Position numbers and translations under genes: made by a program. The notes under the pieces were generated by a model, which did not search any database, was not told where the DNA came from, and worked only from the letters and a program-made list of their open reading frames with translations. 64,000 nucleotides of DNA from Halorubrum alkaliphilum (GTDB lineage Archaea > Halobacteriota > Halobacteria > Halobacteriales > Haloferacaceae): the NCBI RefSeq assembly GCF_017873815.1, contig NZ_JAGGKQ010000012.1:1-64000 (forward strand), written 5' to 3'. Shown piece after piece: positions 1 to 11,211 of the stretch. Every line of letters begins with the position of its first letter. Position 1 is the stretch's first letter.

Positions 1-303
1 GCAACACTGCTCGGGAAGATCGAAGGAGGTCTCGACCACTGGCTCACCTTCGTCGGTGAGCCAGCGGTCTCTCCGACGAACAATGCCGCAGAGAATGCAC
101 TTCGTGAGCCAGTGGTTCTCCGGAAAATCATCGGAACGCTCCGTAATGACCGAGGAATGTTCGTTCACGAGACGATCTTGTCCCTGCTGGCGACGTGGCG
201 CCAGCAGGGACGCAATCCATACGAAGAGCTTCGTCGAGTCGTCAGCAACAATGAAATGATCTCACGGGCTCACGCTGTGCCGGCTGTCGAGACCTCGGGG
301 TAA
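1..303 (+). mobile_element. IS66-family transposase, C-terminal part (5' end outside window)
   Basis: Frame 1 is open from the first base to TAA at 301-303 and encodes the C-terminal 100 residues of an IS66-type (TnpC, DDE) transposase. The family signature is visible: NNAAENALREPVV followed by RKIIGTLRNDRGMF and then LLATWRQQGRNPYEEL, which is the conserved region around the last catalytic Glu. The protein seems to end naturally (VPAVETSG), so the IS end should lie near 300. From about 305 another frame encodes methylase sequence, so the element sits directly against a broken gene. No inverted repeat could be identified. Confidence 0.75.
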
Positions 304-304
304 A

Positions 305-1729
305 CACGTACAAATATCGGAACTTGAAGCAGAGCGTCCTGACTTAGTTGAAGACCTGTCCGAGCAAAGAGAAGAGGCTGACAAGCGGTCTCAAATACTT
401 ACGAACGGCCCGTACAAAGGTATTGGATCTGGTGACCCGGATCTATACCAAGCGTTTTGTTGGCGTTTCTGGCATGTGGTAACTGATGGCGGGGGGATCG
501 GTGTCGTTCTCCCCCGAGAAGCATTTATGGCGAAGGGTTCGGAGGCCTTCCGACGTCATGCTGTTGAGAATGGAACCTTCGACGATGTTACATTTGTGAA
601 GAACAAAAATCGGTGGGCCTTCCAGATGGAGCCTCGATACACGATTGGGTTGGTTTCGCTCCGTAGGTCACTTCCTAATGACGATGCCACGATTCCGATT
701 AGAGGGCCGTACGCGAGTGAAAACGAGTTCAACCAAGGCGTAAGGAAAGATCCCTCGAGGTTTACTATCGACGAAGTCAGAGAATGGACCGATGTTTGCG
801 CTTTTCCTCTGTTACCGCCCGAAGACCGGGCGATAAGTGCGTTCGGCCAACTCCAAAAGTCACCACGTATTTCCGCGAGCGTTGAGGATTCGTGGAGTGT
901 CGTTCCTTATCGAACAGGGATTACCGCAGGAGATCTACTTGATGCTGACGCACCCAGTGAGGCCGATACAACCGTCTGGCCGGTTTACAAAGGTGAATCA
1001 TTCGATGTCTGGAAACCGGACACAAATTCGTACTATGGCTGGGGAGATCGAGATGAGCTGGTTGAATATCTTCGAGACAAGCGATCTCGAAGTCGGAAGT
1101 GGCCAGACACGGATAGGGAACTCCCCTGTTTCCGCCCGTCAATAGCGTTCCGTAGGGTGACCCGGGCGACAGATACTCGGACAATTCGTGCCGCTCTCAT
1201 TCCCCCAGAAGTGTTTATGCGGGATGCAGATCCGCTCTTGCTTTGGGAACGGGGTGACGAGACCGACGAGGCATACCTAATCGGGGTCCTATCATCCATT
1301 CCAGCGGATTGGTATGCCCGTCGTTTCGTAGAAAAGCATTTAGATTATTATATTTTCAATGGAATACCGATACCACGAGCTTCAAGCGAGAATCAACTAC
1401 GTCGAAGAGCCGTTAATCTCGCGGGACGACTCGCCGCAGTAGATGACCGCTATACAGACTGGGCCGAAGCACTCGGTGTCGACTACGGACCGCTCGACGA
1501 AGACACGAAACAGGAGAAGATCTGCGAACTCGATGCTGTCGTTGCGCATCTATACGGGCTCTCCCGTGACCACGTCGAGGTGATCTTCGAGACGTTCCAC
1601 GACGGCTGGGACTACGATGAGCGTCTCGAACGCGTGCTCGATTACTACGCAGACTGGGCCGACCGACTCGACCTCGATCACGCCAACCGCGAGGCGGAAC
1701 AAGCGGCTGGAACACGCAACGATGACTGA
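305..1729 (+). pseudogene. Eco57I-type (class IIG-like) N6-adenine DNA methylase, 5'-truncated
   Basis: Frame 2 is open from about 302 with no usable start until GTG at 476. The product carries the part after the catalytic NPPY motif of Eco57I/PglX-like methylases: GSGDPDLYQAFCWRFW, then VTDGGGIGVVLPREAF, a target-recognition-like region, and a C-terminal segment with LYGLSRDHVEVIFETF typical of these enzymes. The SAM-binding motif I and NPPY motif should lie upstream but are replaced by the IS66 fragment, so the gene is very likely catalytically dead. The stop overlaps the next gene by 8 bases (ATGACTGA), so methylase and helicase were one operon. If reading starts at GTG 476 the fragment is 417 residues. 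Confidence 0.7.
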
Positions 1730-4700
1730 ACGCAGTCGTTTCGAGCGCCCGCAGTTCGTTGACAACCGGAGCGGGAACACGCTCGCCACGGCCATCAATG
1801 GCTACCTCGAAGAGATCGACGACCGACTCGCCGACGACCCGAATCTGGATGTCGTCACGGGCTACTTCAACCCGCGTGGGTACTTCTCGGTCTCCGAGGG
1901 CCTGGAGCACGTCGATCAGGTCCGACTTCTCATCGGTGCCCAGCCGGAATACGAGGGTACCGAACGGTGGCGACAACCAGGTGAACCACTGGACGAAGAG
2001 TACGACCAGAAGCGCATCAACGATGCTCTTCAGCGACTCGATGAGAACCTCGAACAGGACCGGAATCTGCTGGGCTTCTCCCGCGAGATAGACGAGAATC
2101 TTCAGGACCTCGTCGAGTTCCTGAACAGCGACCGCGTGGAGATCCGTCGGCACGAGGATAGCTTCGTTCACGGGAAGGCCTACCTCTTCTCCGACCACGA
2201 GGGCGTCATCGCGGGTTCGTCGAACTTCACTGGCGCAGGCCTGAATTCGAACCTCGAACTCAACCTCGGCACGTACGACCCCCACGTCACGGGCAAGGTA
2301 CAGGACTGGTTCGAGGACCTCTGGAGCGAGAGCGAACCGTTCGATCTCGCCGGGCTGTACGAGGAACGGTTCGAGCCCTACGACCCGTACCTGGTGTACC
2401 TCCGCGTGCTCTACGAGCGATACGGTGAAGAACTCGAAGAGGAACGCGAGGAAGAGGGCGGTATCGGGCTCACGACCTTCCAAGAAGACGGTGTCCGTCG
2501 CGCGAACCGGTTCCTCGATGAACACGGTGGCGTCATCGTCGCCGACGAGGTCGGCCTCGGGAAGACATACATCGCGGGTGAACTCCTCCATCAGTACGTC
2601 CACGAGAACCGTCAGCGCGCTCTTGTGGTCGCACCGGCGTACCTCCGCGACGGGATGTGGAATCGCAAGCCGAGCGAGTGGGGTATTCAGTTCGAGACGA
2701 TTTCCTACGCTGAACTCCGGAACGACAGTCAACTCGGTGGCGACGCCAACAACCTTGATCTCAAAGTCGATGAGTACCAGCTCGTCGTCATCGACGAGGC
2801 CCATGCGTTCCGCAACCCCGGGACTCAGCAAGCCGATGCCCTCCGCCGACTCCTCCGTGGCGACCCGCCGAAGGACGTGGTGATGCTCACGGCAACGCCC
2901 GTGAACAACTCGCTGTGGGACCTATACTACGAGCTCGACTACTTCATCAAGAACGACGCGGCGTTCGCCCACGAGGGGATTCGGTCACTCCGTGAACGGT
3001 TCAAGCAGGCCCAGGCGGAGGACCCGTCGGATCTGAGTCCAGACATGCTGTTCGACGTACTCGACGAGACGACGGTCCGCCGCACGCGTCGGTTCATCAA
3101 GAACCACTACGAGAACGCCACGATGCCCGATGGAGAAGGGGGTTCCGTTCGGATCAGCTTCCCCGACCAGCATCCACGGCGGGTTGACTACGAGTTCTCC
3201 GAGACGTTCGGCGACGAGTACTTCGGCGATGTCGCGCGGGGGCTCGCCGCCGGGGATCACGAGGAGGCAGAACTGACGCTTGCCCGCTACCGTCCGTCGT
3301 ACTATCTGGAGGGTGAGGAGAACGCCTCGGAACTCTCCCTTGTCGGACTCCTGCGGACCGGCTTGCTCAAGCGATTCGAGTCCTCCAGCCACGCGTTCGC
3401 CAACACGCTCAACCGGATGGTGGCACAGAACCGTGCCGCCCTTCAGCTGATGGACGAGGGCTACTTCCCGGACTCCGACGCCATCGACGAGTGGATGGAG
3501 ACGGACAGCGACGAGGCCTGGGAGGAGATGCTCGAAGAGGCTGAAGGAGGTCGTGTCCCACTCGCGGCGGCGGAGGCCGACCCCGATCAGCTTCGTGCCG
3601 ACCTCGAACACGACATCGAGATCCTCGAACGGTGGCACGACGGCGCACGGGCCGTGAGTCGTGACCAGGACGAGAAACTTCACGCCCTCCGAGATACCCT
3701 CCATGACGTGGTAGAACTCGCCCGTGAGGACGCTGAGGCGGGGGAGGTGGACGATGAGAACGTCGAGGCGGCGTTCCGCCAGAACCGCAAGGTGCTGTTG
3801 TTCTCGTACTACGAGGATACAGTCGATTGGATCCTCGACTATCTCGAGGACACCGTCGCGGAGGACGACGAACTGTCGTGTTATGAGGGTCGCATCGCTG
3901 GCGTCTCTGGCGAGGACTCAAAGCGTGGCATTACGCGAGAGGAAGCCGTCTATGGGTTCGCACCGAACATCTCGGACGCCCCACCGGACGCTACTGACGA
4001 GTTCGACATTCTGGTGACGACAGACGTGCTCGGGCAGGGTGTTAACCTTCAGGAAGCCCGCACGGTGATCAATTACGACCTGCCCTGGAACCCGATGCGT
4101 GTCGTCCAGCGAAACGGACGGATCGATCGCGTAAACTCGCCCCACTCAGAAATCTATCCGATCTCGTTCTTCCCGGAGGACCGTCTGGACGAACTCCTCG
4201 AACTCGAACACCGGGTCCGGCGGAAGCTCACGCAGGCGGCACGCTCGATCGGTGTGGACAGCGAGGTCATCCCGGACATGGAGACTCTGGAGCAGAACTT
4301 CTCGGACAAGCTTGAGGACATCGGCTCAATCCACGATGAGGAGAGCGATGTGTACGAGGAGGGCGGGAAGCAGGCGGCGGCCTACTCCGGAGAAGAGTAT
4401 CGGCAGGAACTCCGGAAGGGGTTACAGTCCCGTGAGGGACAGATTACGTCACTTCCTTGGGCCGCAGGATCAGGGTTTGAGGGGCAGAATCCGGGCTACT
4501 TTTTTTGTGCGCGGATTGGCGACGAGGTCTTTATGCGGTACGTCCCCCGCGAGTGGGAGACGATTGAGACTGGTGACGATGACGACGATGTACTCATTCA
4601 GGACACGCTCACCTGCCTCAAGCGAATCGAGTGTACGGAGGAGACAGAGCGTGTCCTTCCCGACGGGATGCGCGAGCGAGTCTATGACGCCTGGGAGGAG

Positions 4701-5132
4701 GCCCGTGGTGACATCTTCCAGCAGTGGCAGGAACAGACTGACCCGCTGAATGTCCAGCCCGACATCCGGAAGCTGTTCCGTGAGGTGGGTCAGCATCTCC
4801 GAGACCACTGGCCGGACGATATGACCCAGGAGAAGCTCCAGACAACAGTCTCCTCGGTCGAAGCGCCGTGGCCACGGCGGTATGAGCGTGAACTCCGCGA
4901 GATCTATGAGGACGAGTCGCTCGCCCCGGTCGAGAAATCCCGCGAGCTGGTTGCCAAGGTTGAGGATCTCGGACTCCAGCCGTACGAAGCCCCAGATCCG
5001 CTCCCTCAGCTCGAAGAGAAGGAGGAGGTAAAGTTGGTCTGCTGGATGGCTGTTGCTCCTGAACAAGACAGTAACGACGAGGAAGGAAGACCATCGTTGG
5101 TGTCCCAGATGGCGGTTGATTCATTCGAGTGA
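1722..5132 (+). CDS. PLD-nuclease-like / SNF2-family helicase fusion protein (defence-type)
   Basis: 1136 residues from the ATG that overlaps the methylase stop; an upstream extension to 1617 lies inside the methylase gene and is unlikely. The N-terminal 200 residues are a phospholipase-D-like domain with one HxK motif (FVHGKAYLF near 149) and GSSNFTGAGL. A superfamily-2 helicase follows: Walker A DEVGLGKT (about 274), DEAH box VIDEAHAF (about 357), LTATPVNN (389), a long insertion, and motif VI QRNGRIDR (about 796). The last 300 residues are unassigned. This architecture occurs with Eco57I-like methylases in restriction-type systems and probably provides ATP-dependent DNA tracking plus a nuclease. 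With the methylase broken, the helicase would act alone or be a relic. It resembles DISARM DrmD in part, but no drmA, drmB or drmC is present. Confidence 0.85.
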   Translation: MTERSRFERPQFVDNRSGNTLATAINGYLEEIDDRLADDPNLDVVTGYFNPRGYFSVSEGLEHVDQVRLLIGAQPEYEGTERWRQPGEPLDEEYDQKRINDALQRLDENLEQDRNLLGFSREIDENLQDLVEFLNSDRVEIRRHEDSFVHGKAYLFSDHEGVIAGSSNFTGAGLNSNLELNLGTYDPHVTGKVQDWFEDLWSESEPFDLAGLYEERFEPYDPYLVYLRVLYERYGEELEEEREEEGGIGLTTFQEDGVRRANRFLDEHGGVIVADEVGLGKTYIAGELLHQYVHENRQRALVVAPAYLRDGMWNRKPSEWGIQFETISYAELRNDSQLGGDANNLDLKVDEYQLVVIDEAHAFRNPGTQQADALRRLLRGDPPKDVVMLTATPVNNSLWDLYYELDYFIKNDAAFAHEGIRSLRERFKQAQAEDPSDLSPDMLFDVLDETTVRRTRRFIKNHYENATMPDGEGGSVRISFPDQHPRRVDYEFSETFGDEYFGDVARGLAAGDHEEAELTLARYRPSYYLEGEENASELSLVGLLRTGLLKRFESSSHAFANTLNRMVAQNRAALQLMDEGYFPDSDAIDEWMETDSDEAWEEMLEEAEGGRVPLAAAEADPDQLRADLEHDIEILERWHDGARAVSRDQDEKLHALRDTLHDVVELAREDAEAGEVDDENVEAAFRQNRKVLLFSYYEDTVDWILDYLEDTVAEDDELSCYEGRIAGVSGEDSKRGITREEAVYGFAPNISDAPPDATDEFDILVTTDVLGQGVNLQEARTVINYDLPWNPMRVVQRNGRIDRVNSPHSEIYPISFFPEDRLDELLELEHRVRRKLTQAARSIGVDSEVIPDMETLEQNFSDKLEDIGSIHDEESDVYEEGGKQAAAYSGEEYRQELRKGLQSREGQITSLPWAAGSGFEGQNPGYFFCARIGDEVFMRYVPREWETIETGDDDDDVLIQDTLTCLKRIECTEETERVLPDGMRERVYDAWEEARGDIFQQWQEQTDPLNVQPDIRKLFREVGQHLRDHWPDDMTQEKLQTTVSSVEAPWPRRYERELREIYEDESLAPVEKSRELVAKVEDLGLQPYEAPDPLPQLEEKEEVKLVCWMAVAPEQDSNDEEGRPSLVSQMAVDSFE

Positions 5133-5533
5133 GACTACAGAAAGCCCGAGAGAGAGAGAGATACTGATACATCAGGACGTGGCCGCACCCTGCTGTCGCG
5201 ACGGTTGAGGATTTATTGAAGCCCGGACGCCAACCTACCCCAGCATACGTCTCGACAGCAGGGGTGGCACTCGACTTTACTCCTAATCCACATCTTTAGC
5301 CCCTCAAACGAATCAATTCGACAGAATCGGTGTTTCCCTATTAGTATATAGAATAATGACAGATCTGTACTTCCCGAATTAAATCTGTATGGACACTCTA
5401 ACAGCCGTTTAGTGGTTACCCGGTGTCTTGATGATGCTGTCGTCGGATAGTCTATCTATGGCGCTTTTATGTCTGAGGTGTAGGTGGTCAGAACCAGCGG
5501 GGCTATTTTAGTGATTCCTGTGAACCGAGCTAT
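5133..5533. other. gene-free spacer in the island
   Basis: About 400 bases, A+T-rich towards the right. It opens with a short GA run (5146-5160) and holds the words CGCACCCTGCTGT near 5184 that recur in the repeats at 6593 and 8435. Several TATA-like words occur; CTATTTTAG near 5503-5511 stands about 26 bases before the ATG at 5534 and is the likely promoter of that gene. I see no RNA gene or coding frame. Confidence 0.5.
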
Positions 5534-5758
5534 ATGTTGTCCGACATCATAACAGGTATCAAATATATAGATAAGAAAACATTATTGGTTTTTCCATTAG
5601 CTATATTTGCAGTAGGGGCGGCACCTCCACTCCTCGAAATATACTATACACGGACCCCAGGCTCAGAAATTTCGATTGCAGTGGTTTCTGCGCTAATCAC
5701 AGCTATCGAACTCCTTCGAGTGAGAGGGAAATTGAGGGATGCTTCGACGTGGGATTGA
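5534..5758 (+). CDS. small two-helix membrane protein, unknown function
   Basis: 74 residues with a hydrophobic segment at about 15-35 (TLLVFPLAIFAVGAAPPLL) and another at about 46-61 (ISIAVVSALITAIELL), ending in a short basic then acidic tail. Codon use is A+T-rich, unlike the core genome but like the rest of the island. The ATG lies about 26 bases after a TATA-like CTATTTTAG, fitting a leaderless transcript. I do not recognise a family. Small membrane proteins in defence islands can be effectors or toxins, but nothing here proves that. Confidence 0.55.
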   Translation: MLSDIITGIKYIDKKTLLVFPLAIFAVGAAPPLLEIYYTRTPGSEISIAVVSALITAIELLRVRGKLRDASTWD

Positions 5759-5865: not shown

Positions 5866-6525
5866 TCACTCGACCCACCGAGAGAGATCCGCAAGTTCGT
5901 CGCCGATGATTTCCGAGCTCAGGAACGTCAGTTGGTTCCGTAGCGCGGGGATCTTGTCCCGGTTCGCGCCCCAGTTGGCGTGAAACCAGACGCGATAGCA
6001 CTCTAATCGGACTCCGCCTTGGACGGCGCGAAACGCCCGGATGTCGTGGTTGAGTTCTCGTTCCCTCGAATCGTAATAGTTCATAAGCGTCTGGAACACT
6101 TTCTCGTGGAAGCACAGGATATGATAGGTCTCCTGATCGAGGAGGTCCAGTTGTTCAAAGAAGTGCTCGACATCGTCCGGGGTCGGATCTACGTTCCCTG
6201 AGTTCGCATCGACAATTCGCTCGACCAGATCCGTCATATAGGCCCCTCCGAGATCAGCGTCCTCGACAAAATCTCGGAACTGGTCGTTGCGATGTTTTGG
6301 CTCCGTCGAGTGGAAGTTCTGGTAGTCGGACGGCAATTGTGTAGAGGGATTCAGCGACAGCAACACAATCGACGGTCGCAATCGGTCCTGGTTGCGCTTA
6401 ATGAACTCGTAGAGCCTCCCCGGGCTCTCCTCGATACAGCCCTCTGAAGGGAAGTCCGAACTCCAGAGTGCCCAACTCGATGTTGGGTATTCGTCTCTCA
6501 GTGTCTCCAGTGTGCTGACATCCAT
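5866..6525 (-). CDS. uracil-DNA-glycosylase-like / DUF1643-like protein
   Basis: 219 residues. The core VLLSLNPST (about 54-62) followed by an FHSTEPKHRND segment (about 71-81) and GAYMTDLVE (about 94-102) resembles the beginning of DUF1643 and uracil-DNA-glycosylase-superfamily proteins, where an NPS loop after a hydrophobic strand forms the active-site pocket. The later LDQETYHILCFHEKVFQTL would be the next strand and helix. No zinc or iron-sulfur cysteine pattern is seen. It stands alone, head away from the PD-(D/E)XK gene. The assignment rests on motif likeness only; it could be an island-encoded DNA base-processing protein. Confidence 0.6.
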   Translation of the reverse strand: MDVSTLETLRDEYPTSSWALWSSDFPSEGCIEESPGRLYEFIKRNQDRLRPSIVLLSLNPSTQLPSDYQNFHSTEPKHRNDQFRDFVEDADLGGAYMTDLVERIVDANSGNVDPTPDDVEHFFEQLDLLDQETYHILCFHEKVFQTLMNYYDSRERELNHDIRAFRAVQGGVRLECYRVWFHANWGANRDKIPALRNQLTFLSSEIIGDELADLSRWVE

Positions 6526-6627: not shown

Positions 6628-8127
6628 TCACTCAAATACCTCAAGAGACTCTTCATACGCTTCATCGATGAGAGTAATTATTTGATGGTTCTCAAGCACC
6701 AGATCGTGAAATGCATCGTCCAACGCCGCGACATATGCTTCGAAGAAATCACCATACTCTCTTACCGGGATGTTGTAGGTCGCGGTAAGTGGACTGCTAC
6801 GGGTACCAGGAACGGTCACTGATGATGGCATCTCGTCGTTGCTGTTTTCGGCTTTAGTGATGAATGTTTGTCTAAATTTGTCATTGAACTCATCACTATT
6901 CCCTAAACCGTTAATTATCCTAATCTGTAATAAATTATCCTTGATGGCCTTTTCTCTGTTCTTTTCCAAACGATGACAGAACATTACCCAAATATCATCC
7001 CGGTTTTCATCTGGGACATAGATATTTGACAGGTCATCCTTGTGGCGAAACCATCCTTCTTTGAAGAAGGTTGCCCAGTCTGAACCACTTTGTGAAAAGA
7101 TCCACGTCTCATCTTCGATAGATGGCTGAGAGAGTTCAACCGCTATATCGCTATCTCGTAGAGAGGAGATCTCGACTGGCTCAACACTATCCATGGACTT
7201 GACCAGTTGGTTTCCCCAGTTATTGGCGAACCAATCCCACCGGTTTTCATACGCTTCCTGTGCTTCAGTTATTGCATCGTAGTACTCGAAGTACAGCTCT
7301 GCTTTTTCTTGCTGGTTTTCCTGATATTCAGTCATTTTTACTTCACTTTGGATTGTTCCGATCAACTGGTCAAGTTGTGCCGTTGTTCGAGCAGGGTATT
7401 CGCCGTGACTCTCGCTCAGAAACGTCTGAATCTGATCGGCTACCCATCTCCACCAGACGTGGACAAACTCTTCCGCTTCCGGAGGTGAAGCATCCTTCGG
7501 CGCAAGATACACATAATGGTGGCCGCTCTCGGGAACGTCTGTTTTTGCCAAATCGATACTCTGGAACGAATTGGCATCTGCGTAATCCCGTGTCTGATCT
7601 TCATCCTCAGGGGCATTGATCTTCAGCTCCCAGCAAATGAACCACTCTTCAGAAGCCCACACAACAGCGTCTGGCCGTCGGCCGTTCGGGATCGTAACCT
7701 CTTGCTTGATTTGAACATCAGCGAGATCCAGCCCGGAGAACGTGAAATCCATATCGTCTCGATCGGAGAGTGCCGACAGGACGTGCTCCAAGAGCGCGTG
7801 ATCCAAGCCATGTGGTTCGTCCGGAGATAGATAGTGGAACAGAAGCTGTTGCCACTCTTCTTCCTGCTGGTTGTTCCGAATGATTTGGAGTGTCGTTGAC
7901 GGCGGCTCCTTAGCCTCCGGAAGCCCATCAAGATCGCTTTTGAGTCCGGCCAATTGATCCGCGAGGCTATCTGTCACACAAGACGATATACAAGCCCTAC
8001 AAATCAGCTTTGCCCTCGTGCGTTCATTCCCCTCGTCGAATAGAGCAACGTGAAAGTTGGTGTAGCTGGAAGCTGTTGAGGAGCAGTATGGACACCGATG
8101 ACGATCTCCACGAGTGGGCGGAGTCAC
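6628..8127 (-). CDS. zinc-ribbon PD-(D/E)XK nuclease-family protein
   Basis: 499 residues. The N-terminus has two CxxC knuckles (Cys12/15 and Cys43/46, with Cys50 near), a likely zinc ribbon. A nuclease core follows: Pro152-Asp153 in GRRPDAVVW and Glu167-x-Lys169 in WFICWELKI, the D...ExK arrangement of PD-(D/E)XK enzymes, with FSQSGSDW and WFRHKDD later. The C-terminal half (300-499) has no recognised domain. The start is a GTG at 8127; a later start would remove the first zinc knuckle. A gene on the other strand starts at 8088, so the two 5' ends overlap by 40 bases. Stand-alone defence nuclease is the most likely role (inference). Confidence 0.75.
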   Translation of the reverse strand: MTPPTRGDRHRCPYCSSTASSYTNFHVALFDEGNERTRAKLICRACISSCVTDSLADQLAGLKSDLDGLPEAKEPPSTTLQIIRNNQQEEEWQQLLFHYLSPDEPHGLDHALLEHVLSALSDRDDMDFTFSGLDLADVQIKQEVTIPNGRRPDAVVWASEEWFICWELKINAPEDEDQTRDYADANSFQSIDLAKTDVPESGHHYVYLAPKDASPPEAEEFVHVWWRWVADQIQTFLSESHGEYPARTTAQLDQLIGTIQSEVKMTEYQENQQEKAELYFEYYDAITEAQEAYENRWDWFANNWGNQLVKSMDSVEPVEISSLRDSDIAVELSQPSIEDETWIFSQSGSDWATFFKEGWFRHKDDLSNIYVPDENRDDIWVMFCHRLEKNREKAIKDNLLQIRIINGLGNSDEFNDKFRQTFITKAENSNDEMPSSVTVPGTRSSPLTATYNIPVREYGDFFEAYVAALDDAFHDLVLENHQIITLIDEAYEESLEVFE

Positions 8128-8384: not shown

Positions 8385-8434
8385 TGAGTAATGTCGAGCC
8401 CGTTAGGTTTTCTTGTGCGGGGTTTATTGCCGAG

Positions 8435-8464
8435 GGAAGGTCAAGACGAGCGCGACCCTGCTGT
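8435..8464 (+). repeat. 30-bp direct repeat, right copy
   Basis: Second copy of the repeat at 6593. It sits in the 288-base spacer 8385-8672, which otherwise shows no coding frame of its own or RNA gene; the frame open upstream of 8673 has non-haloarchaeal composition and is better read as untranslated. Confidence 0.6.
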
Positions 8465-8672
8465 CGGACCATCGACCCGATCACGGTCTTCACTTCCAGC
8501 CTCGGCTCAGCAAACCGGCAATCCTACCTCGCAGATAGCACCATTTGGTGGTCTCAATAGCACAATCTGCGAAGTAGCCGCTGTCTTCCGATTCTCTACT
8601 CACGTCCCGACAGCATCGCACGGATTCGGCCCGACCCAGACGATTTTGTTGCCTGCGCTCGACAGTCGAACT

Positions 8673-9653
8673 ATGACCTTCAGCGTCTCTTGGCATACGC
8701 TTCTGGACGAACTCGACGATCTCCCCGAGGGAGCTACGCTGATCACGCCGCTGTCGCACGATCGCTTTCGCGTGACCGACGTACAGGAACAACGGGTCGT
8801 CATCGAGTTCCTCGACCGCGACATAGACGAAACTCGGCCGCTCCAACGCGATCAGTTCGAGACGCTGTATCGGCGGATCACCGAGGAACCCGGTGGCTTC
8901 GAACTGGATCGACTCCCGCCAAATGCCGATCCGTATCCGGCTGTGCTGAGTGTGCATCCACGGTTCGAGATCGACGAGGACCAAGGCATGATCGCCGAGA
9001 AGGAGGGATCGACCACGAGCCAGCTACTCGATGTCAGGGATGAATCCGAGGAGAGCGAGGAAGAACGTACCGAGCCAGATCTGGATGTGTATGCGGACGC
9101 TCTTCTGCTCGTTGACGCGCTCGAACGCCACGAGATGGAAGTCCTCGAAGACATGGATACGGACGCTCTCGTAAACCTCTACACGCTTCTCTCGGACGTT
9201 CAGCGCAACGCGAACGATCTCCGCAAGGACGTGGCCGACGTACTGTTGAACCGGCTCCATCACGACCGACCGGTGTCCGGACCGTTCGGGTCTGTTCAGC
9301 GAACCACGCGCCGGAACCGCTCGCTGAAGGACGACGAGGAAGTGCTGGGGACGCTTGAAGGGGCCGGAATCGACCGTGAGCGTGTGCTGGGTGTTGACCG
9401 TGACAAGGTAGACGACGCGCTGGATGTCACGGAGCTGTCCGAGAGCGACGTGTACGAAGTCGAAGAGAGCGAGTACGTTCGGAAGGCCGAGGTGGACGAG
9501 GAACGCAAAGAGACGCGACTCCAGGGCCTCAAGGACCAATTGGCGGCCTCGGAAGATGAAGAAGCAGAGGACCTCCGCCGGGAGATCGAGGACCTGGAAG
9601 ACCGCATCGACGAACTCACCAGCTTTCGAACTGGTGCGGAGGTACAAGAATGA
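8673..9653 (+). CDS. unknown acidic protein with C-terminal coiled coil, partner of the downstream nuclease
   Basis: 326 residues from ATG 8673. The first 110 residues form a compact domain (LPEGATLITPLSHDRF, then VVIEFLDRD) that I do not recognise. A very acidic linker (DESEESEEERTEPDLD) follows, then a helical part with SDVQRNANDLRKDVADVL and a basic turn (QRTTRRNRSLKDD). The last 60 residues are a heptad-rich coiled coil (LKDQLAASEDEEAEDLRR, then IEDLEDRIDELTSF). The stop overlaps the next start (ATGA), so the two proteins are co-translated and may form a complex. The frame extends upstream to 8391, but that stretch lacks the acidic bias and covers a repeat. Confidence 0.7.
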   Translation: MTFSVSWHTLLDELDDLPEGATLITPLSHDRFRVTDVQEQRVVIEFLDRDIDETRPLQRDQFETLYRRITEEPGGFELDRLPPNADPYPAVLSVHPRFEIDEDQGMIAEKEGSTTSQLLDVRDESEESEEERTEPDLDVYADALLLVDALERHEMEVLEDMDTDALVNLYTLLSDVQRNANDLRKDVADVLLNRLHHDRPVSGPFGSVQRTTRRNRSLKDDEEVLGTLEGAGIDRERVLGVDRDKVDDALDVTELSESDVYEVEESEYVRKAEVDEERKETRLQGLKDQLAASEDEEAEDLRREIEDLEDRIDELTSFRTGAEVQE

Positions 9654-10168
9654 CTGTCACCGTTGATGTTCCGCCCCGGTATGTTCGGCGGGCTCGTGAG
9701 ATGGGAACGGATCGAAACAAGTCGTTCGAGGAACGGGAGGGATACGATAATCATCAAAATACAGGAGGTGAGAATCCAGAGAATCGGCATCAGGTTGGGA
9801 TGATAGGCGAGATAGCGTTCGCCATCTATGCTGACCTTCAGGTCAATTCGGAACTGGTGGAGTGGTCTGACGGTGGTGTCGATTTTAAAACATCCATCGA
9901 CGGTGTTGAGCAGACGATTGATGTGAAAACGAGACAAACCAAGCCGTACGTCTTTTCGGTAAAAGAAGAGAGTGTGAACGCTGACCTCTTTATTCTCGGA
10001 CATCTGGAGGGCGATACTTCGGTGAAGTTTCTGGGGATGGCAACGAAGGAGATGGTTCTGAACGGGAATCGAAAATGGTCTACGTCAATCGAGAAGTACA
10101 ACTACCAAGTATCGCTTTCCTCGTTGGAGCCGATTCCGGATAGTGAGTCTATCGAGAGCTTGTCGTGA
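9650..10168 (+). CDS. PD-(D/E)XK restriction-endonuclease-like protein
   Basis: 172 residues, last gene of the island. The nuclease core is complete: Glu54 in MIGEIAFAIY, Asp78 in GGVDFKTSI, and Asp91-x-Lys93 in TIDVKTRQTK, spaced as in small phage and restriction enzymes of this fold. The end (NYQVSLSSLEPI) probably packs on the core. It follows the coiled-coil gene with a 4-base overlap. A DNA- or RNA-cutting role with the coiled-coil partner supplying binding is plausible. It could equally be a housekeeping nuclease of a virus or plasmid. Confidence 0.75.
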   Translation: MTVTVDVPPRYVRRAREMGTDRNKSFEEREGYDNHQNTGGENPENRHQVGMIGEIAFAIYADLQVNSELVEWSDGGVDFKTSIDGVEQTIDVKTRQTKPYVFSVKEESVNADLFILGHLEGDTSVKFLGMATKEMVLNGNRKWSTSIEKYNYQVSLSSLEPIPDSESIESLS

Positions 10169-10624
10169 TGAGTGGCTCTTGTTGTTTCTGAGTCCTGTTA
10201 TCTGGAACGTACTCCTGTGACTCCCGAGAGTGTACCATCGTTTATTTATAGGATCGTGCAGTTATTTCGGGATGAGAAGGTACGAGTCAGGTCGAGAACC
10301 GGCGATAGTGGCCGTGAAGTGGCCGGTTTGAGGCGATCTCGAAAAAATCCTTGGTAAGGACGAGACCCCGGATTCAAATTCCGGCCTAGGCTTTTTATTT
10401 CACACGTCCTGTACCCACATCTCTGGGTAATTACATCGGTCAGAAAAACCGGGGGAATCGGCGCGGCGAACCGGAACCAGTCCGGGCCGTGCGCCCATCA
10501 AAATCGACCGACTGGAGCGACTTATATCCGCGTCAGACGGGTGTGATCCGTTCGGCCGACGTTCCGACGGGGCGGGGCTCCGCTCGGCCGGTAAGCCGAT
10601 AGGGACGGAGGACGACGGTGTCGT
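10169..10624. other. island/core junction, no gene apart from the tRNA fragment
   Basis: The left part (10169-10347) is A+T-rich island sequence with a TTTATTTATAG word near 10240. The tRNA fragment follows at 10348-10392 with a T run just after it. From about 10430 the composition becomes core-like. GACTTATATCC at 10519-10528 looks like a TATA box, about 100 bases before the ATG at 10625. Confidence 0.5.
10348..10392 (+). other. 3' fragment of tRNA-Thr(GGT): putative right attachment site
   Basis: The sequence reads as the 3' half of a tRNA: anticodon loop TTGGTAA with anticodon GGT, the 3' anticodon strand GGACG, T arm CCGGA-TTCAAAT-TCCGG, acceptor strand CCTAGGC and discriminator T, then a T run at 10393. 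The 5' half is missing: there is no GCCTAGG acceptor strand upstream, and only TCC of the 5' anticodon strand is kept. This is what integration into the 3' end of a tRNA leaves behind. The intact tRNA and an integrase should lie left of this window. Confidence 0.7.
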
Positions 10625-10732
10625 ATGACCTTCGAGGACTTGTTCGAGCGAGGAGGAGAGTACGCCGTCGAGACGGACGATGTCAGCCGGACGCTCGCGG
10701 AGCGACGCGCGGAACGGAGCGATCGCGAATGA
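10625..10732 (+). CDS. 35-residue protein, first gene of a two-gene operon
   Basis: MTFEDLFERGGEYAVETDDV begins a 35-residue, charged protein ending in AERRAERSDRE. The TGA overlaps the ATG of the PIN-like gene (ATGA). Such short leader-gene products fused by overlap to a PIN-like gene look like small haloarchaeal conserved proteins, or an antitoxin-like partner, but the function is unknown. Codon bias fits the core genome. Confidence 0.5.
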   Translation: MTFEDLFERGGEYAVETDDVSRTLAERRAERSDRE

Positions 10733-11211
10733 GTGGGCGGCCGGAGCCGAGCCCCGCCCGAGTCGTCGCCGACGCGGACGTGCTGGCAGCGGATCTGCTG
10801 GTGGGTGGTGGCGCACGCGACGCGCTCGATATCCTCCGGGAGCACTCCTGGACGACGCTCGTCGCCAGCGATCCGTTGCTCGACGACGCAGCGGCGATCG
10901 TGGCGTCGCTTACGGATCCCGACCTCGCAAGCGACTGGCGCGAGAAAGTGGCGGCGTGGCGGGACCGGGTGGACCACACGGATGGGGATCACCCCGCGTT
11001 GGCGTCGGCGTACCACGGCGGCGCGATGCAGGTCATAAGTCTCGACCCGACGTTGACCGGTCCGAAGGCCGCCGCCGGACTCCGCGATCGACTGCCCGTG
11101 AGCGTTCGCGAGCCGCGAGCGTTCGCGACCGTGTTCGATCCTGAACGACTGTATCCGGCGGTTATCGGCGGAGAGTACCCCGGGCCGGATCGGGACGCGC
11201 GGGACTGGTGA
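10729..11211 (+). CDS. PIN-like domain protein
   Basis: 160 residues. RVVADADVLAADLLVGGGAR places Asp15 and Asp17 after a first strand, as in PIN nucleases, and HPALASAYHGGAMQVISLDP resembles the later strand-helix region. Other acidic active-site residues could be Asp50 or Asp56 in ASDPLLDDAA. It may cut RNA, as in VapC, or be a degenerate PIN fold. It is coupled to the 35-residue gene upstream and convergent with rdgB. The function remains unassigned. Confidence 0.65.
   Translation: MSGRPEPSPARVVADADVLAADLLVGGGARDALDILREHSWTTLVASDPLLDDAAAIVASLTDPDLASDWREKVAAWRDRVDHTDGDHPALASAYHGGAMQVISLDPTLTGPKAAAGLRDRLPVSVREPRAFATVFDPERLYPAVIGGEYPGPDRDARDW

What the first reader, a model, noticed from the sequence alone, without database searches (positions are those of the whole stretch)
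10348..10392. Island boundary marked by a 3' tRNA-Thr(GGT) fragment
The fragment keeps the anticodon loop, T arm and 3' acceptor strand but lacks the 5' half, exactly at the change from A+T-richer sparse genes to dense core genes. Its orientation implies the element lies to the left, as the island does.
Basis: partly seen in the sequence, partly recalled or inferred. Interest (0 to 1): 0.6.

Follow-up and report, generated by a model that had tools for sequence, protein, structure and literature searches.

The report
Integrated defence-gene element in tRNA-Thr
A roughly 25-kb mobile DNA element carrying restriction-type defence genes has inserted itself into a threonine tRNA gene of a salt-loving archaeon, and the 46-base tRNA scrap in the window is the piece of the original gene that it pushed aside: a well-known kind of event, here shown clearly.

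Summary
In detail: window 10348-10393 matches the 3' part of tRNA-Thr(GGT) (42 of 45 bases; next best in the window 25 of 45). The only intact tRNA-Thr(GGT) lies on another contig (C14:14761-14834, minus), with a tyrosine integrase 103 bp after it. The two contigs are two ends of one element: a type IIG restriction-methylase gene is split between them by an IS66-family insertion with the same 8-bp target duplication on both sides. The element is about 24.7 kb without the IS, 55% GC against 66-68% in the core. In seven relatives the intact tRNA is followed directly by the DUF7384 gene that here follows the fragment: the empty site. The same integrase clade sits beside the same tRNA in other haloarchaea, three times with the distal repeat, and beside a tRNA-Thr attP on a Haloferax plasmid and in HF1-group haloviruses. 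Mechanism: site-specific recombination, probably in the anticodon stem-loop; the element supplied a new 3' half to the working tRNA gene and the native 3' half was displaced. New member of a known kind. Integration and excision were not shown experimentally, and the two contigs are not physically joined.

The parts
1..311 (+). right end of an IS66-family insertion sequence (C-terminus of transposase); its other end is G000:C14:1-112
   Evidence: NF033517 and PF03050 matches; 16 matches in the genome, many at contig ends; inverted ends GTACGTGTTTA[G/C]CCCGAG
312..319 (.). 8-bp target-site duplication AAATATCG; the other copy is at G000:C14:113-120
320..1729 (+). C-terminal part of type IIG restriction enzyme-methyltransferase; N-terminal part at G000:C14:101-2779 (minus)
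   Evidence: PDLC03620: window part matches model 957-1369, C14 part 58-886 of 1378; open frame continues upstream to the IS end
1617..5132 (+). SNF2-type helicase with PLD domain, DrmD/HKD+Snf2-like, defence-associated (true start probably downstream of 1617)
5866..6525 (-). hypothetical protein, element cargo
   Evidence: no match in Pfam, NCBIfam, PHROGs
6628..8127 (-). PD-(D/E)XK nuclease-superfamily protein, element cargo; homologues 50-53% identical next to related integrases in L144 and L145
8391..9653 (+). 420-aa element protein; homologues 57-67% identical directly after the integrase in elements of L146, L147 and G056
   Evidence: phrog_35116
9650..10168 (+). 172-aa protein at the distal element end; a homologue sits at the same place in the Haloquadratum element
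   Evidence: 35% identity over 171 aa just inside the distal repeat of L151
10196..10322 (.). conserved inner arm of the distal attachment site
   Evidence: 76% identity over 128 bp with the inner arm of the distal site in L151
10348..10393 (+). distal attachment site: displaced 3' part of the native tRNA-Thr(GGT) gene
   Evidence: 42 of 45 bases with the intact tRNA; 45 of 45 with the tRNA of G031
10732..11211 (+). core right flank: DUF7384 gene, directly downstream of intact tRNA-Thr in seven relatives
   Evidence: PF24109
11242..11907 (-). core right flank: Ham1/RdgB family nucleotide pyrophosphatase
   Evidence: PF01725; conserved in 57 of 59 genomes

Best explanation
The fragment is the distal attachment site (attR) of an integrated mobile element of about 24.7 kb (IS not counted). 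The element entered a haloarchaeal chromosome by tyrosine-recombinase recombination between its own copy of the tRNA-Thr(GGT) 3' part and the chromosomal gene. Strand exchange most likely took place in the anticodon stem-loop, because CCTTGGTAAGGACGAGA is shared by every att copy aligned here while bases further 3' differ. The element's 3' half now completes the working tRNA gene at the integrase end, and the native 3' half was pushed about 25 kb away, where it marks the boundary. Shown from sequence: intact tRNA, adjacent integrase, distal repeat, conserved inner arms, empty sites in relatives, recurrence of the same integrase type at the same tRNA, and a plasmid-borne attP-integrase pair. 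Inferred: the crossover position, the donor of each tRNA 3' half, that the element can still excise, and that its restriction-type genes serve defence (one of them is broken by an IS).
For: Single intact tRNA-Thr(GGT) at C14:14761-14834. Tyrosine integrase (PF00589, E 1.7e-15) starting 103 bp 3' of it. Contigs linked by a split methylase gene with IS66-type ends and the same 8-bp duplication on both sides. The distal inner arm and the integrase-side inner arm both match the Haloquadratum element (76% over 128 bp, 84% over 103 bp), which ties the two contig ends to one element family independently of the IS. Empty sites: in G003, G005, G011, G012, G017, G019 and G023 the tRNA is followed within about 180-262 bp by DUF7384. 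Same integrase clade at the same tRNA in G004, G040, G056 and in eight named loci; complete tRNA-to-repeat elements of about 12.4 and 13.3 kb in G040 and G056 and about 10.8 kb in L151. The circular plasmid pHGLR3 of Haloferax gibbonsii carries a 54-bp tRNA-Thr 3' copy (96%) 103 bp before a 71% identical, truncated integrase. HF1-group viruses carry the same kind of attP just upstream of a 64-66% identical integrase (PMC7230728).
Against: The two contigs are not physically joined in the assembly; the IS between them is only partly present. The empty sites come from other species of the genus, and some relatives (for example G018) have other genes between tRNA and DUF7384. In G004, which has the integrase, no distal repeat was found within 58 kb. 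Three mismatches separate the two att copies.
Confidence: 0.95

Rival explanations
1. The element is a remnant of an HF1-group tailed provirus that lost its structural genes.
For: Integrase 64-66% identical over its full length to HF1/HF2-group integrases, with tRNA-Thr attP just upstream in both. HF1-type proviruses of 77.6 kb in tRNA-Thr are published (PMC7230728).
Against: Closer integrases (91-94%) lie in other elements and a 71% one on a plasmid. No structural PHROG match in the 19 element proteins scanned. The proteins at 8391-9653 and 9650-10168 have no match in 50,697 phage records.
Confidence: 0.05
2. The element is a satellite of HF1-group viruses: it shares their integration site and integrase type, brings a P4-family primase and no structural genes, and would be packaged by the helper.
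For: TIGR01613 P4-family primase, HF1-type integrase and attP, no structural genes found.
Against: The primase was not found in the related elements examined; no packaging signal was sought; an integrative plasmid fits as well, and a plasmid with the same attP-integrase pair exists.
Confidence: 0.08
3. The fragment is a tRNA pseudogene from a local duplication or deletion, unrelated to any integrating element.
For: None specific; a partial tRNA-Thr without integrase nearby is reported in Haloquadratum walsbyi (PMC3119063).
Against: Integrase beside the intact gene, conserved arms at both ends, empty sites and parallel elements.
Confidence: 0.01

Closest known systems
HF1/HF2-group haloviruses (Haloferacalesvirus) and their proviruses in tRNA-Thr (PMC7230728)
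   Same: Integrase 64-66% identical full length; partial tRNA-Thr(GGT) attP just upstream of it; proviruses in a tRNA-Thr gene
   Different: This element is about 25 kb rather than about 75-78 kb, has no structural genes among the proteins scanned, and carries restriction-type cargo
Elements beside tRNA-Thr(GGT) in Natrinema altunense, Halorientalis pallida, Halolamina pelagica, Natrarchaeobius chitinivorans and Haloquadratum J07HQW2 (loci L145-L151)
   Same: Same tRNA, same integrase clade (67-94%); distal repeat seen in N. altunense and Haloquadratum; some shared cargo proteins
   Different: Mostly different cargo; some much shorter (about 11-13 kb)
Plasmid pHGLR3 of Haloferax gibbonsii LR2-5 (NZ_CP063208.1)
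   Same: tRNA-Thr 3' copy 103 bp before an integrase of the same clade, followed by restriction-modification genes
   Different: 65-kb circular plasmid, not integrated; integrase truncated; type I rather than type IIG restriction genes
Haloquadratum walsbyi genomic island 3 in tRNA-His and its tRNA-Glu relatives (PMC3119063)
   Same: Integrase beside a complete tRNA, 3' tRNA repeat at the far end, restriction and helicase cargo, uncertain virus or plasmid nature
   Different: Other tRNA targets; integrases beside tRNA-Glu and tRNA-His in this survey are only about 40% identical
pNOB8-type (non-split) archaeal integrases (PMC8371274)
   Same: Integrase gene left whole by integration; R...YxxR...Y active-site pattern; att of 40-50 bp reaching from the anticodon loop to the 3' end
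   Different: Membership in the published integrase families was not computed

Membership tests
tRNA-targeting integrative element with tyrosine integrase | Intact tRNA gene at one end with integrase adjacent | tested here: met
tRNA-targeting integrative element with tyrosine integrase | Direct repeat of the tRNA 3' part at the other end | tested here: met
tRNA-targeting integrative element with tyrosine integrase | Uninterrupted site in genomes without the element | tested here: met
   seven relatives
tRNA-targeting integrative element with tyrosine integrase | Both ends on one continuous DNA molecule | tested here: inconclusive
   two contigs, linked by split gene, IS ends, 8-bp duplication and matching arms; not physically joined
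tRNA-targeting integrative element with tyrosine integrase | Excision and integration activity | not testable with these tools
   needs experiment
pNOB8-type archaeal integrase | R...YxxR...Y catalytic pattern and unsplit gene | tested here: met
   TGLRPIEV, WYSIRHG, MKYLH read in the alignment; unsplit ORF; pattern as given in PMC8371274
HF1-group provirus | Head-tail structural genes | tested here: not met
   no structural PHROG match in 19 element proteins; short ORFs not all scanned
HF1-group provirus | HF1-type integrase with tRNA-Thr attP | tested here: met
DISARM defence system | DrmA, DrmB, DrmC with DrmD/DrmMI | tested here: not met
   only a DrmD-like helicase and a methylase that matches type IIG better than DrmMI; no separate DrmA/B/C among the proteins scanned

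The most novel reading that the evidence does not exclude
The element is a defence-bearing satellite or competitor of HF1-group haloviruses: by using the same integrase type and the same single-copy tRNA-Thr(GGT) site it may occupy the viruses' landing place, and with its P4-family primase and no structural genes it may be mobilised by them.
Probability: 0.08. Interest if true: 0.65.

Novelty: new member of a known kind. Interest (0 to 1): 0.3.

Why it matters
It fixes the boundaries of an integrated element spread over two contigs of a draft genome and shows that one tRNA gene, tRNA-Thr(GGT), is a repeated landing site for one integrase clade across several haloarchaeal groups, a plasmid and HF1-group viruses. 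Sequence differences between the att copies show how such insertions swap the 3' half of a working tRNA gene. The kind of event is textbook; the link between restriction-type islands and HF1-group viruses through one attachment site is a testable lead.

Tried and rejected
The idea that tRNA-Thr directly precedes DUF7384 and RdgB together in relatives was only partly right: DUF7384 follows the tRNA in seven relatives, but RdgB is elsewhere in those; in G018 (and apparently G001, G010, G013, G025) DUF7384 and RdgB are together, but other genes or contig breaks separate them from the tRNA. G004 was searched for a distal repeat over 58 kb without success. The viral contig scan with the integrase gave no confirmed relative, although the annotated phage collection did. 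DISARM was considered because of DrmD-like and DrmMI matches and rejected for lack of the core genes. The paired T-stem change in the fragment (G-C to A-U) was first suspected to be decay; the same allele in intact tRNAs of G031, G024, Halorientalis pallida and Halolamina pelagica shows it is a natural allele.

Full report
The observation. The window is the first 64 kb of an 83.9-kb contig (C12) of a 3.1-Mb haloarchaeal draft genome in 64 contigs. At 10348-10393 lies the 3' part of a tRNA-Thr(GGT) gene, from three bases before the anticodon loop to the discriminator base; the 5' half is absent. It agrees with the genome's intact tRNA-Thr(GGT) at 42 of 45 bases, against 25 of 45 for the next best place on either strand of the window. 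Base composition changes at this point: the element is 55.2% GC, the core flanks 67.5% and 66.3%.

The other end. The fragment has only one further strong match in the genome, C14:14760-14805 minus, which is the 3' part of an intact tRNA-Thr(GGT) at C14:14761-14834. A tyrosine integrase of 416 aa (PF00589, E 1.7e-15) starts 103 bp after the tRNA, in the same direction. In its alignment the motifs TGLRPIEV, WYSIRHG and MKYLH are visible, which agrees with the R...YxxR...Y pattern given for pNOB8-type integrases in PMC8371274. C14 from 1 to about 14.8 kb is 50-63% GC per kb, then 65-71%.

Why the two contigs are one element. The free end of C14 holds the N-terminal part of a type IIG restriction-methylase (profile positions 58-886 of 1378) and the start of the window holds the C-terminal part (957-1369). 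Each part stops at an inverted end, GTACGTGTTTA[G/C]CCCGAG, bordered by the same 8 bases AAATATCG. Window 1-303 is the C-terminus of an IS66-family transposase with many partial copies at contig ends, which explains the assembly break. Independently, the inner arm next to the fragment (10196-10322) and the inner arm next to the intact tRNA both match the corresponding arms of an element in Haloquadratum J07HQW2 (76% over 128 bp, 84% over 103 bp). The element is 24,684 bp without the IS.

The empty site. In G003, G005, G011, G012, G017, G019 and G023, all of the same genus, the intact tRNA-Thr is followed about 180-262 bp later by DUF7384, the gene that follows the fragment in the window. G008 has it 1.2 kb downstream. 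This is the arrangement expected before insertion. The relatives are other species, and the gene order further right differs among them (RdgB is adjacent to DUF7384 only in some), so a same-species comparison is still wanted.

Recurrence at the same tRNA. Integrases 65-71% identical in G004, G024, G040 and G056 all lie beside the same left-flank gene and tRNA-Thr; in G024 that first tRNA copy is only a 5' half and an intact copy lies 3.7 kb further. Eight named loci, including integrases 91-94% identical in Natrarchaeobius chitinivorans, Halolamina pelagica, Haloquadratum and a probably mislabelled MAG, have tRNA-Thr(GGT) directly upstream. Natrinema altunense (G040) and G056 show a 57-58 bp distal repeat about 12.4 and 13.3 kb away, and Haloquadratum a 44-bp one about 10.8 kb away. 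The circular plasmid pHGLR3 of Haloferax gibbonsii carries a 54-bp tRNA-Thr 3' copy without the 5' part, 103 bp before a truncated integrase of the same clade: the attP-integrase pair in an unintegrated replicon. More distant integrases (about 40-46%) lie beside tRNA-Gly, tRNA-Glu, tRNA-His or tRNA-Thr, so the target follows the integrase clade.

Which tRNA half is native. The intact gene in this genome has the 3' sequence GAGAGCCCGGGTTCAAATCCCGG, the same as both repeats in G040 and G056; the fragment has GAGACCCCGGATTCAAATTCCGG, the same as the intact tRNA of G031 and G024. The simplest reading is that the element brought the first allele and displaced the second. This is an inference: both alleles occur widely. 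All copies share the anticodon loop and the 3' anticodon strand, which fits a crossover there, as described for other archaeal integrases (PMC8371274).

Cargo and relation to viruses. Besides the integrase and a P4-family primase (TIGR01613) the element carries the split type IIG enzyme, a PLD-SNF2 helicase of the DrmD kind, a PD-(D/E)XK protein and a PDC-S11 defence-candidate protein. The methylase gene is interrupted by the IS, so this restriction module is probably inactive here. No structural virus gene was found among 19 proteins scanned against PHROGs. The integrase is nevertheless 64-66% identical to that of HF1-group haloviruses, and those carry a tRNA-Thr attP just upstream of it, already recognised as attP in PMC7230728. 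The integration module is therefore shared between these viruses, a plasmid and smaller cargo elements.

Verdict. The fragment and its interpretation are right. The event is of a well-known kind, a tRNA-targeting integrative element, and this is a new member. Activity, crossover position and any tie to HF1-group viruses remain to be tested.

Noticed in passing
G000:C13:31452-35545 (locus L040:9452-13547): A cluster of about 15 tRNA genes for many amino acids, several scoring poorly, on an 81.5-kb contig; it resembles the tRNA arrays of large tailed viruses. An 8-kb search found only short matches to phage records.
   Followed up: partly
G000:C14:14761-14834: The intact tRNA-Thr(GGT) has a two-base insertion (CT) in the D loop that none of the relatives aligned has, although it is the only copy in the genome.
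   Followed up: no
locus L141 (G024:C2), reversed coordinates about 1865-5656: G024 has a 5' half of tRNA-Thr next to an integrase gene with an internal TGA, and an intact tRNA-Thr 3.7 kb further on, an arrangement opposite to the usual one.
   Followed up: no
window 1-311 and further places in the genome: IS66-family copies lie at many contig ends (C3, C9, C13, C16, C18, C19, C27, C35), so this IS accounts for a good part of the assembly breaks.
   Followed up: partly
G000:C24:26503-28796: Two further integrase relatives (43% and 36%), facing each other about 230 bp apart, near a tRNA gene at C24:26117-26191: probably a second tRNA-integrated element in this genome.
   Followed up: no
locus L144, PUOX01000072.1: A contig labelled as a Mollicutes MAG carries a haloarchaeal tRNA-Thr and an integrase 94% identical to this one, so the record is probably mislabelled or contaminated.
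   Followed up: no
locus L152 (NZ_CP063208.1, plasmid pHGLR3), 5845-6966: Haloferax gibbonsii plasmid carries an unannotated tRNA-Thr 3' copy 103 bp before a truncated integrase and type I restriction genes.
   Followed up: partly
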